Part shown: positions 20,806 through 22,427 of the stretch, piece after piece
How positions within the stretch are numbered: position 1 is the first letter of the stretch
Layout of the letters: every line of letters begins with the position of its first letter
Notes under the pieces: model-generated
Told to the model about the DNA's origin: nothing
What the model saw: the letters and a program-made list of their open reading frames with translations, nothing else
Database searches by the model: none
Assembly (NCBI RefSeq): GCF_016767715.1
Contig: NZ_CP050145.1
Location: 3,782,001-3,846,000, forward strand
Direction: 5' to 3'
DNA: 64,000 nucleotides
From: Mycobacteroides chelonae
GTDB taxonomy: Bacteria > Actinomycetota > Actinomycetes > Mycobacteriales > Mycobacteriaceae
Translations under genes and position numbers: made by a program

Positions 20806-20848
20806 ACCGCCGGGTGTGAGCGCCAATGCTCACGCCCGGCGGTTTTTT
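20806..20848 (+). terminator. Intrinsic terminator of the sdh operon
   Basis: A CCGCCGGG-T-GTGAGC arm pairs with GCTCAC-G-CCCGGCGG across a short loop and is followed immediately by six T residues (20843-20848). It is the only canonical U-tract terminator I noticed in this window. Confidence 0.92.
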
Positions 20849-20866: not shown

Positions 20867-20893
20867 TGTCACACATCCGAGGGCTGCCTCGTC
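20867..20893 (+). promoter_or_regulatory. ECF41/SigJ-type promoter: TGTCACA-N16-CGTC
   Basis: TGTCACA (20867-20873) and CGTC (20890-20893) are separated by 16 nt. From memory this matches the SigJ-dependent sigI promoter of M. tuberculosis (GTCACA-N16-CGTCCT) and the ECF41 promoter motif. Start ATG 20902 is 8 nt past the -10, implying a leaderless or nearly leaderless mRNA. Confidence 0.75.
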
Positions 20894-20901
20894 ATACGGA
20901 T

Positions 20902-21510
20902 ATGACCGCACAATCACGCAGAACAACCCGTATCAATCCCGTCCCCCCGCAACAAGCCTCCTTGCTCACACGCATCATGTACCGGGTCGCCAAGCGGCGA
21001 TACGGCCAAGTGCCCGAACCGTTTACGGTGCTTGCCCACCACCGCAAGCTGATGGTGGCCGCCGCGATGCACGAGCAGATGCTGGGCAGCGCATCCAAGG
21101 TTCTGCCGGCCAGCGTGCGAGAACTCGCGGTGTTCTGGACCGCCCGCACGGTGGGCTGCTCATGGTGCGTCGACTTCGGCTCCATGCTGCAGCGGCTCGA
21201 CGGCTTGGACGTCGAGCGCCTCAAGGCCATCGACGACTATGCGACCTCGCCGCTGTACACCGACGACGAGCGGGCAGCCATCGCCTATGCCGATGCGATG
21301 ACCGGCAATCCGCATGACATCACCGACGAGCAGATCGAGGATCTACGCCGGCGGTTCGGTGACGCCGGGGTGATTGAGCTGACCTACCAGGTCGGCGTCG
21401 AGAACATGCGCGCCCGGACCTACGCCGCCCTCGGAATCACCGAGCAGGGCTTCAATTCCGGCGATGCCTGCCGGGTTCCATGGGCTATCGAGGACACAGC
21501 GGACGCCTAG
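20902..21510 (+). CDS. Carboxymuconolactone decarboxylase/AhpD-like protein with CxxC motif
   Basis: A 202-residue protein of the CMD/AhpD superfamily: helical core with ELAVFWTARTVGCSWCVDFG near residue 80-95, where CSWC is the redox CxxC of the peroxidase-like group. It may act as an alkylhydroperoxidase-type antioxidant; the substrate is unknown. A longer ORF from 20521 exists but lies inside sdhB and the terminator. ATG 20902 is placed directly after a SigJ-type promoter. It is convergent with sigJ and their 3' ends overlap by 4 bp, matching the known pairing of ECF41 sigma factors with CMD-family targets. Confidence 0.88.
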   Translation: MTAQSRRTTRINPVPPQQASLLTRIMYRVAKRRYGQVPEPFTVLAHHRKLMVAAAMHEQMLGSASKVLPASVRELAVFWTARTVGCSWCVDFGSMLQRLDGLDVERLKAIDDYATSPLYTDDERAAIAYADAMTGNPHDITDEQIEDLRRRFGDAGVIELTYQVGVENMRARTYAALGITEQGFNSGDACRVPWAIEDTADA

Positions 21511-22415
21511 CCCCTGCGCAACGGCGTGCCGCTGAACTTGTCGGGATTGCTCACATCCCAGACCGCCAGCACTTTGCCGTCGCGCACGGTGTATCCACTG
21601 ACCCGGGGCAGCACCGGCCTGAAATCCGGGTCGGTGTCTGTCTCGGTCAGATACATGCCGAACTGTCCGTTCACCAACGCCGGATTGATGGCCTGAATCA
21701 TCTGCGGGCCGTAACGGTCCAGCAATCCGAGCAGGAAGCGCGCCACCTTATCGGGGCCGCGGATGACCCGCACCGCGGTGGGTGCCTTGCCATCGGAATC
21801 CCCCGTCATCGTCACATCCGGATGCAACAGTCGGACAACGGCTTCCACACTGCCGGACATGAGGGCCTCGAGCAGCTGGCCGACCACCTCATTATGCTCG
21901 GCATCACCCACCGGCTGCGGCGTCGCACTCACCGTCCGACGCGCACGCGTGGCGAGTTGACGCGCGGCCGCGTCGTTGATGCCCAGGATCTCGGCAATCT
22001 GCTTGAAGGGCACGGAGAATCCGTCGTGCAGGACGAAGGCCACGCGCTGATCGGGTGCCAGACGGTCCAGCACCACCATCGCCGCAAAGCGCGCGTCCTC
22101 ACTGGCCACCAGCACGGCCAGCGGATCATTGCCGTCCAAACCGGTGACCACCGGCTCCGGAAGCCACTCCCCCACATAGGTTTCCCTGCGATGGACGGCC
22201 GACCGCAGCCGATCCAGGCCCAGCCGGGATACCACGGTGGTCAGCCACGCCGCGAGGTCCTCGATCTCGACGGTCGTAGAGTGCAGGCGCAACCACGCGT
22301 CCTGGACGATGTCCTCGGCGTCGGCGACGCTGCCGGTGAGGCGGTAGGCCACCGCCTGCAACCGAGGGCGCAGCGCCTCGAACTCGTCGGTGCGATCGCG
22401 AACCGGAACTGCCAC
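21507..22415 (-). CDS. sigJ: ECF41-group RNA polymerase sigma factor SigJ with SnoaL-like C-terminal domain
   Basis: A 302-residue sigma factor, Rv3328c homologue. Region 2 (about 8-75) contains AYRLTGSVADAEDIVQDAWLR. A linker with WLPEPVV near 85 follows, and region 4 (about 110-160) contains APDQRVAFVLHDGFSVPFKQIAEILG. The C-terminal SnoaL/NTF2-like domain (about 170-302) carries the ECF41 hallmarks DGK and NPDKF. In ECF41 proteins this domain regulates activity in place of an anti-sigma factor. GTG 22415 is preceded by TAGGCT 6 nt upstream. The adjacent CMD gene bears a matching promoter. Confidence 0.95.
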   Translation of the reverse strand: MAVPVRDRTDEFEALRPRLQAVAYRLTGSVADAEDIVQDAWLRLHSTTVEIEDLAAWLTTVVSRLGLDRLRSAVHRRETYVGEWLPEPVVTGLDGNDPLAVLVASEDARFAAMVVLDRLAPDQRVAFVLHDGFSVPFKQIAEILGINDAAARQLATRARRTVSATPQPVGDAEHNEVVGQLLEALMSGSVEAVVRLLHPDVTMTGDSDGKAPTAVRVIRGPDKVARFLLGLLDRYGPQMIQAINPALVNGQFGMYLTETDTDPDFRPVLPRVSGYTVRDGKVLAVWDVSNPDKFSGTPLRRG

Positions 22416-22421
22416 CTCTTG

Positions 22422-22427
22422 AGCCTA
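22422..22427 (-). promoter_or_regulatory. Leaderless -10 element (TAGGCT) of sigJ
   Basis: Minus-strand TAGGCT plus 6 nt leads to GTG 22415. It lies back to back with the divergent -10 at 22437-22442, leaving both promoters within about 35 bp. Confidence 0.55.

What the first reader, a model, noticed from the sequence alone, without database searches (positions are those of the whole stretch)
20867..22415. SigJ (ECF41) and its probable direct target: CMD gene with TGTCACA-N16-CGTC promoter
The CxxC carboxymuconolactone decarboxylase-like gene is preceded by TGTCACA, 16 nt, CGTC, then 8 nt to its ATG. This agrees with the ECF41 promoter and with the recalled SigJ-dependent sigI promoter of M. 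tuberculosis. The gene is convergent with sigJ, the arrangement typical of ECF41 and its COE partners, but the adjacent target is absent in M. tuberculosis as I recall its map. SigJ itself appears to be expressed from a leaderless housekeeping-type promoter rather than autoregulated. The 4-bp tail-to-tail overlap could add antisense feedback.
Basis: partly seen in the sequence, partly recalled or inferred. Interest (0 to 1): 0.72.

Follow-up and report, generated by a model that had tools for sequence, protein, structure and literature searches.

The report
SigJ switch and its leaderless target
A mycobacterial switch protein (the sigma factor SigJ) sits tail-to-tail with a small redox-protein gene whose promoter, conserved across the genus, matches the known promoter of this switch family and is altered in the one group of species found that kept the gene but lost the switch.

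Summary
The motif is real: TGTCACA-N16-CGTC, 8 nt, ATG at 20867-20902, before an AhpD/CMD-like gene convergent with sigJ (4-bp stop overlap). The bare core is no rarer than chance in this genome; its position, spacer and conservation are. In the 80 best orthologous loci of named genomes, 80 carry it (at most 1 mismatch), 8-9 nt from the start codon, so a leaderless mRNA is predicted; 77 of 80 have sigJ convergent. Much of the spacer is conserved too, and an extended motif finds only this site in the genome. Of 50 Mycobacterium genomes with the gene, 44 with SigJ have CGTC and 6 without SigJ have CATC and a non-consensus spacer; the six are one clade, so one event. sigJ has a leaderless housekeeping-type -10 and no ECF41 site, so it is probably not autoregulated. 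Antisense feedback is not supported; the M. tuberculosis claim was not testable. This is an ECF41-COE module, a known kind; the leaderless, convergent, non-autoregulated form and the spacer code are the new parts.

The parts
20806..20848 (+). intrinsic-terminator-like hairpin (20806-20843) and T run after sdhB, before the CMD promoter
   Evidence: 17 pairs, 12 GC; 1 found, shuffles mean 0.7, so by count alone not significant; sequence
20867..20873 (+). -35 element TGTCACA of the ECF41/SigJ-type promoter
   Evidence: GTCAC invariant in 79 of 79 aligned orthologous sites
20874..20889 (+). 16-bp spacer, itself partly conserved (CNT.......CYGYCT)
20890..20893 (+). -10 element CGTC
   Evidence: CGTC in 44 of 44 genomes with SigJ, CATC in 6 of 6 without
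20902..21510 (+). CMD/AhpD-like CxxC protein (202 aa), predicted leaderless mRNA starting at or within a base or two of the ATG
21507..22415 (-). sigJ, ECF41 sigma factor with C-terminal SnoaL_2-like domain (302 aa)
21507..21510 (.). 4-bp tail-to-tail overlap of the two genes
22422..22427 (-). TAGGCT, housekeeping-type -10 of sigJ, 6 nt before the GTG start
   Evidence: TANNNT 5-8 nt before a start codon in 73 of 78 loci against 42 of 5272 random ATG/GTG

Best explanation
SigJ is an ECF41 sigma factor made from a housekeeping, leaderless promoter and held in check by its fused SnoaL_2-like domain. When its unknown signal is present, SigJ holoenzyme recognises the extended promoter TGTCACA-C-N-T-N7-CYGYCT-CGTC and starts transcription at or within a base or two of the CMD gene's ATG, giving a leaderless mRNA for a CxxC AhpD-like redox protein. 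SigJ does not feed back on its own gene, so the pair is an open-loop switch with, as far as the extended motif shows, one target in this genome. Shown by sequence: the two genes, the promoter, its genus-wide conservation, the start-codon geometry, the sigJ -10 and the absence of an ECF41 site before sigJ. Inferred: recognition by SigJ, the start site, the signal, the restraint by the SnoaL_2 domain, the enzyme's reaction.
For: Motif equals the experimentally derived ECF41 consensus (PMC3426412, section 22 read). 80 of 80 named loci: 40 exact, 40 with one mismatch; 79 with N16, 1 with N17; 75 at 8 nt and 5 at 9 nt from an in-frame ATG. Convergent sigJ in 77 of 80. 44 of 44 SigJ-bearing genomes have CGTC, 6 of 6 SigJ-less have CATC. 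Spacer positions conserved up to 1.73 bits while the 20 bases upstream stay at 0.45 or less but for the last (0.84); window site 35.2 bits against at most 14.1 for the 58 other near-matches. In 100 genomes the extended pattern has 36 hits against 1 for the control: by place 22 precede CMD orthologues, all in genomes with SigJ; of the other 14, 12 precede an ORF, 9 of them sigma, CMD, NAD-binding, Pyr_redox or PNPOx-type. sigJ: TANNNT 5-8 nt before a start in 73 of 78.
Against: No expression data were seen for this locus. The tie of SigJ loss to CATC is one clade, one event. Of 16 sigma-factor matches to the SigJ model in this genome, 5 reach 106 bits or more, so another ECF41 could share the site. 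The extended pattern misses half of the SigJ-bearing CMD promoters (22 of 44 hit), and the spacer part scores low at some likely ECF41 sites: G063 -13.9, G093 -3.5, sigI of G005 -10.8, this genome's oxidoreductase paralogue -15.2, so the spacer code is not ECF41-wide. In the founding study the mRNA had a 22/23-nt leader, and four order-level relatives have their first in-frame ATG 37-48 nt after CGTC, so the leaderless geometry is a local feature and needs a mapped start. The protein is under Pfam's CMD cut-off.
Confidence: 0.86

Rival explanations
1. The promoter is a true ECF41 promoter but is read mainly by another ECF41 of the same cell (the oxidoreductase-linked paralogue at genome 1129886-1130758 or the SigI-like gene at 3092595-3093473), SigJ being redundant.
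For: The paralogue's operon carries TGTCACA-N16-TGTC, the same -35; 5 genes reach 106 bits or more on the SigJ model. The six SigJ-less genomes keep TGTCACA, N16 and CATC, as if something still reads it, and all six keep a gene that scores like that paralogue (309-321 bits) with CGTCACA-N16-TGTC about 1.25 kb upstream.
Against: The paralogue site scores -0.5 bits on the CMD matrix against 35.2 for the window site; the SigI-like gene has a GTAAC-type -35; CMD stays convergent with sigJ in 77 of 80 loci; CGTC and the spacer consensus are absent where SigJ is absent, although 3 of those 6 genomes (G004, G024, G053) have yet another ECF41 gene behind an exact TGTCACA-N16-CGTC.
Confidence: 0.09
2. 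The motif is a binding site of some other regulator, or chance, and CMD is transcribed by a housekeeping sigma factor.
For: The bare core is not enriched in the genome. No sigma-70-type hexamer pair was found, but mycobacterial housekeeping promoters show no conserved -35, so this says little.
Against: Fixed spacing to the start codon in 80 of 80 loci, agreement with the published ECF41 promoter, and hits of the extended motif before other ECF41-linked gene types.
Confidence: 0.03
3. The CMD protein is not only a target but also part of the switch, for example a redox sensor that turns SigJ on or off.
For: Raised as a hypothesis in PMC3426412 section 21; the two genes occur together: of 60 Mycobacterium genomes 44 have both, 6 CMD only, 10 neither (4 of these under 90% complete), 0 SigJ only.
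Against: A target gene alone explains co-occurrence; six genomes keep CMD without SigJ; the same study supports regulation through the fused C-terminal domain (abstract). One of the 44 (G045) has its CMD match in two frames, that is, SigJ with a broken-looking CMD.
Confidence: 0.12

Closest known systems
ECF41 group: Ecf41Bli-ydfG (Bacillus licheniformis) and Ecf41Rsp-RSP_0606 (Rhodobacter sphaeroides), PMC3426412
   Same: ECF sigma with C-terminal extension and WLPEP linker, adjacent CxxC CMD-type gene, TGTCACA-N16-CGTC-type promoter before the CMD gene.
   Different: Convergent genes (9 of 373 in that survey); no leader against 22/23 nt; sigma gene without the promoter; partly conserved spacer.
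M. tuberculosis SigJ (5xe7) and its sigI target
   Same: Orthologous sigma factor, 413.6 bits over residues 9-300; 66% identity over the fragment used as query.
   Different: The target reported there is sigI (passages of PMC4821874); here the adjacent CMD gene is the candidate and this genome's sigI-like gene has a GTAAC-type site. Whether M. tuberculosis lacks the CMD gene was not tested.
AhpD-like / CMD-family CxxC proteins (PDB 6ohj Bmp8 debrominase, 6k40, 2ijc)
   Same: Fold match of a medium-confidence model (mean pLDDT 70.7; TM by query length 0.53-0.65 in the ten matches with E <= 0.001) and E-x11-C-x2-C.
   Different: The residue four after the second Cys (His in AhpD, motif recalled) is Gly in 14 of 14 aligned orthologues; Pfam CMD under cut-off.

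Membership tests
ECF41 sigma factor | sigma regions 2 and 4 with a C-terminal extension of about 100 aa | tested here: met
   Sigma70_r2 12-73, r4_2 113-161, SnoaL_2 180-283 at 27.6 bits, cut-off 27, in 302 aa
ECF41 sigma factor | WLPEP motif in the linker between regions 2 and 4 | tested here: met
   YVGEWLPEPVVTG in the ORF translation; feature as described
ECF41 sigma factor | three conserved motifs in the extension | not tested
   shown only in figures that are not held
ECF41-COE module | adjacent CMD, oxidoreductase or epimerase gene; CMD type with CxxC | tested here: met
   CMD-like gene adjacent, C86-x-x-C89 invariant in 14 of 14 aligned; Pfam CMD 19.4 bits, under the cut-off of 23, AhpD-like fold match
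ECF41-COE module | TGTCACA-N16(+/-1)-CGTC before the COE gene | tested here: met
ECF41-COE module | COE transcription depends on the sigma factor | not testable with these tools
   needs RNA from wild type and mutant
SigJ orthologue | NCBIfam SigJ model over cut-off and same locus in relatives | tested here: met
   397.5 bits, cut-off 271; sigJ convergent with CMD in 77 of 80 loci, SdhA or SdhB in 75 of 80
Canonical AhpD peroxidase | E-x11-C-x2-C-x3-H catalytic set (recalled) | tested here: not met
   E74, C86, C89 invariant; position 93 is Gly in 14 of 14
Leaderless transcript | transcription start at, or within 5 bp of, the start codon | tested here: inconclusive
   promoter geometry fits; no mapped 5' end seen; definition from PMC3898074 passages

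The most novel reading that the evidence does not exclude
SigJ reads more than -35 and -10: the spacer is part of its code, perhaps through its fused SnoaL_2 domain, and when one Mycobacterium clade lost SigJ the CMD promoter was not simply lost but taken over by another regulator, keeping TGTCACA, N16 and a new fixed CATC eight bases before the start codon. The genus would then show a natural promoter hand-over between sigma factors on a leaderless gene.
Probability: 0.33. Interest if true: 0.62.

Novelty: new variant of a known kind. Interest (0 to 1): 0.45.

Why it matters
SigJ is common in the genus (44 of 60 genomes looked at) and present in the tuberculosis agent, but its signal is unknown and few targets are named. 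A single, genus-wide, spacing-fixed target with an extended promoter code gives a clean reporter for finding the signal. The SigJ-less clade is a ready-made natural control for which promoter bases SigJ maintains.

Tried and rejected
Rejected: motif rarity as proof (core not rarer than its reversed control; the looser NGTCACR-N16-CGTC 44 against 35). Rejected: the second exact site in the genome (4043058-4043084, -) as a target: it lies antisense at the end of an ORF, and I saw no convincing gene behind it in the ORF list. Rejected: an early reading that in some genomes CMD lies behind sigJ in an operon; minus-strand loci of the genome search are not turned round, and after turning them the arrangement is convergent. 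Rejected: sigJ autoregulation (no site of the pattern before sigJ). Dropped rows: the one N17 locus (L092) from the 79-site alignment; L092 and the six Mycobacteroides loci (L049-L054) from the 73-site matrix; G045 and G089, and second copies of G004 and G024, from the CMD tree. The TANNNT background tested one start codon each, while the sigJ count could choose among a few candidate starts, so it flatters the contrast somewhat. Result that does not fit a simple story: G089 (40% CMD) has the SigJ-like gene behind CMD on the same strand and no site with fewer than 3 mismatches.

Full report
WHAT IS THERE. The window lies in a 5.06-Mb one-contig genome. The CMD protein's best named relatives are Mycobacteroides (90% Mycobacteroides sp. 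LB1, 92% over residues 8-198 in M. chelonae), so a member of the M. chelonae-abscessus group is inferred. After sdhB and a terminator-like hairpin (20806-20843) come TGTCACA (20867-20873), 16 nt, CGTC (20890-20893), 8 nt, and the ATG (20902) of a 202-aa protein; convergent with it is sigJ (21507-22415, -), the two genes sharing 4 bp. SigJ passes the NCBIfam SigJ model (397.5 bits, cut-off 271), has sigma regions 2 and 4 and a SnoaL_2-like C-terminus just over its cut-off (27.6 against 27) and the WLPEP linker, and matches M. tuberculosis SigJ 5xe7 at 413.6 bits. PMC6418233 (passages) predicts three or four sigJ orthologues in members of this group; the present gene is the best-scoring of this genome's five.

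THE PARTNER PROTEIN. Pfam's CMD family is reached only below its cut-off (19.4 against 23 bits). A medium-confidence model (mean pLDDT 70.7) matches AhpD-like structures, the best being the debrominase Bmp8 (6ohj, E 1.7e-4, TM 0.62 by query length). E74, C86 and C89 are invariant in 14 of 14 aligned orthologues, but the position of the AhpD catalytic histidine (motif recalled) is glycine in 14 of 14. I call it an AhpD/CMD-like CxxC redox protein and not an alkylhydroperoxidase.

IS THE PROMOTER MORE THAN CHANCE. Not by the bare core: 2 exact sites in the genome against 9 of the reversed control, 59 against 57 with up to one mismatch. The other exact site is antisense at the end of an ORF. But of the 80 best orthologous loci in named genomes (of 531 found), 80 carry the site: 40 exact, 40 with one mismatch, 79 with N16 and one with N17, and an in-frame ATG 8 nt (75) or 9 nt (5) after CGTC; seven of the 75 also have an in-frame ATG at 2 nt. 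In whole genomes, 50 of 50 Mycobacterium genomes with the gene have NGTCAC[A/G]-N16-C[G/A]TC, with the ATG at 8 nt in 46 and at 9 nt in 4. The two sets share species.

AN EXTENDED CODE. In 79 aligned sites (80 less the N17 one) the 20 bases upstream carry 0.02 to 0.45 bits per position, but for the last (0.84), while the spacer is conserved at several positions: C at +7 (65 of 79), T at +9 (70), C at +17 (76), G at +19 (68), C at +21 (74), T at +22 (72), counting the first base of TGTCACA as 0. A matrix from 73 sites outside Mycobacteroides gives the window site 35.2 bits (spacer part 14.7); the 58 other near-matches of the genome reach at most 14.1 in all and -2.0 in the spacer. The extended pattern GTCACAYNYN7CNRYCYCGTC has 36 hits in 32 of 100 genomes against 1 hit for the reversed control, and one hit in the window's genome, this site. 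By comparing places, 22 of the 36 are promoters of CMD orthologues, that is 22 of 44 SigJ-bearing genomes and 0 of 6 SigJ-less; the pattern is thus strict and misses half. Of the other 14, two have no convincing gene behind them (L278, no ORF; L281, an ORF judged by eye and not scanned) and 12 precede an ORF: two sigma factors (one sigI-type; one with SnoaL_2 under its cut-off), one CMD, two NAD-binding/NmrA proteins, one Pyr_redox, three PNPOx-type (L275 over the cut-off, L284 under it, L285 by likeness only), one DoxX, one alpha/beta hydrolase and one without a family. Nine of the 14 are thus gene types known beside ECF41 factors, so the spacer signal is not only shared ancestry of one locus. 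Against a general ECF41 spacer code: low spacer scores at G063 (-13.9), G093 (-3.5), sigI of G005 (-10.8) and this genome's oxidoreductase paralogue (-15.2), against positive ones at G072 (5.8), G084 (4.3), sigI of G015 (6.1) and an ECF41 of G072 (12.7).

THE NATURAL KNOCK-OUT. In 60 Mycobacterium genomes (G000-G059), 44 have CMD and SigJ, 6 CMD only, 10 neither (4 of the 10 under 90% complete), 0 SigJ only (I count CMD at E <= 1e-70 and SigJ at E <= 1e-80). 44 of 44 with SigJ have CGTC; 6 of 6 without have CATC, and in those six the spacer part scores -10.2 to -20.3 bits, like the chance sites (mean -18.2), while TGTCACA, N16 and the 8 nt to ATG stay. The six show no SigJ-like gene within about 4 kb of CMD (tblastn, E <= 1e-6) and none in the genome at E <= 1e-80. 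Each has one gene that scores like this genome's oxidoreductase-linked paralogue (309-321 bits), with CGTCACA-N16-TGTC about 1.25 kb upstream (the gene between was not scanned). Three of the six (G004, G024, G053) also have another ECF41 gene right behind an exact TGTCACA-N16-CGTC, and G043 one behind GGTCACA-N16-CGTC; so CATC did not arise because every CGTC-type ECF41 promoter had gone. On the CMD tree the six are one clade (100/98, one change): one event and not six. Read plainly: CGTC and the spacer are kept where SigJ is, and changed where it is not. That TGTCACA and CATC are constant in the clade suggests another reader; this is inference.

SIGJ'S OWN PROMOTER. Upstream of sigJ in the window is TAGGCT, 6 nt, GTG. 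TANNNT ends 5-8 nt before a start codon in 73 of 78 loci (window and 77 others) against 42 of 5272 random start codons; that fits the leaderless TANNNT promoters described for M. tuberculosis (PMC3898074, passages). No ECF41-like site of the pattern used precedes sigJ in these loci. So sigJ is probably not autoregulated, unlike ECF factors in general (PMC3426412, introduction passage).

ARRANGEMENT. sigJ is convergent with CMD in 77 of 80 loci, its stop within 2.5 kb of the CMD start in 72; in the other 3 no SigJ lies in the stretch held. One of these three (L120, the contig of G001 by its length) has sigJ convergent 4.9 kb beyond CMD. SdhA or SdhB lies in 75 of the 80 loci. Order-level relatives G072, G084 and G093 have the same convergent pair and an exact core, but, with G063, their first in-frame ATG is 37-48 nt after CGTC, behind a purine-rich GGAG stretch, so they look leadered. 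G063 has the core with one mismatch and no SigJ-like gene in its 8.7 kb. In the ECF41 survey the convergent order is 9 of 373. Ends of the pair: 53 of 78 overlap (4-80 bp; exactly 4 bp in 7), 7 are 6-91 nt apart, 18 are 455 nt or more apart; an antisense function of the overlap is therefore not a general feature.

MECHANISM. PMC3426412 (sections 20, 21 and 22 read, passages of others) shows for two species that ECF41 drives the CMD gene from this promoter and, by its abstract, that the fused C-terminal extension is crucial for and regulates activity; the review PMC8999054 (passages) describes the extension as inhibitory, part of it being needed. The text of PMC3426412 puts the start at a G followed by 22/23 nt, while its Table 5 gives 31 and 32 nt for the same genes; if the table counts from the -10 element, the start lies 8-9 nt after it, which here is the A of the ATG. 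That step is my inference. sigJ mRNA is low in growing M. marinum and rises in two-week cells on solid medium and after heat and cold stress, some of these changes small or not significant (PMC4596819 passages), so stationary phase is a first condition to test. The authors of PMC3426412 found no reproducible phenotype for ECF41 mutants of their two species, oxidative stress included, and cite a slightly greater H2O2 sensitivity of an M. tuberculosis sigJ mutant.

OTHER ECF41 MODULES IN THIS GENOME. A Pyr_redox oxidoreductase (1130770-1131927, -) followed by an ECF41 (1129886-1130758, -) with TGTCACA-N16-TGTC; and a SigI-like gene (3092595-3093473, -) divergent from an NmrA-like gene, each with a GTAAC-type -35 and CGTC, the NmrA-side site 8 nt before an in-frame GTG (by eye). 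Of 22 sigI-family loci (20 over the NCBIfam cut-off) 17 have the GTAAC type, 3 an exact TGTCACA-N16-CGTC, 2 neither in the stretch printed. So ECF41 paralogues of one cell appear to use different -35 elements.

LITERATURE. A search for sigJ with carboxymuconolactone and Mycobacterium found only PMC3426412. A search on ECF41, Mycobacterium and leaderless (at least two of three) found 511 papers, of which I saw a listing of 15; one (PMC3616915, start sites of Sinorhizobium) holds all three words and was not opened; none names a leaderless ECF41 target in its title. Only this open-licence library was searched, and the structure paper on M. tuberculosis SigJ is not held, so I do not claim that the leaderless form is unpublished.

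VERDICT. A well-supported ECF41-COE module with its promoter: a known kind. New to me are the genus-wide leaderless, convergent, non-autoregulated form, the conserved spacer, and the coupled change in the SigJ-less clade.

Noticed in passing
G000 genome 1129886-1131989 (L129): Second ECF41 module: oxidoreductase-ECF41 operon with TGTCACA-N16-TGTC and a leader.
   Followed up: partly
G000 genome 3092595-3094473 (L131): SigI-like sigma factor divergent from an NmrA-like gene; both with GTAAC-type -35, N16, CGTC; 17 of 22 sigI-family loci look alike. A distinct promoter code for a sister ECF41.
   Followed up: partly
L005, L008, L010, L015, L019, L020, L022, L025, about 60-90 nt before the CMD start: Direct repeats of GATTCTTGG-like units with a period near 11 bp upstream of the ECF41 promoter in some mycobacteria; perhaps an operator.
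   Followed up: no
L189-L194, upstream of CMD: In the six SigJ-less genomes a closely similar block (about CCTAGCCGAGTAGTTAGTCCGTCAAC) precedes the CATC promoter, toward a divergent gene that looks like an acyl-CoA dehydrogenase in the 3 of 6 looked at (by likeness only).
   Followed up: no
L228, L229, L230 (G053, G024, G004): Another ECF41 gene about 50 nt behind an exact TGTCACA-N16-CGTC in three SigJ-less genomes: probably autoregulated.
   Followed up: no
window 22449 (+): SMP-30/strictosidine-synthase-like gene starts 33 nt from the sigJ start, divergent, so the two promoters probably overlap.
   Followed up: no
G045:C1:1267601-1268162: The CMD match is in two overlapping frames although SigJ and a CGTC promoter are there: the one such case among the 44 genomes with both.
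   Followed up: no
L275, L284, L285 (G001, G023, G031): Extended ECF41 motif before PNPOx-type genes with hydrophobic N-terminal parts in three species: possible further targets of SigJ or of a paralogue.
   Followed up: partly
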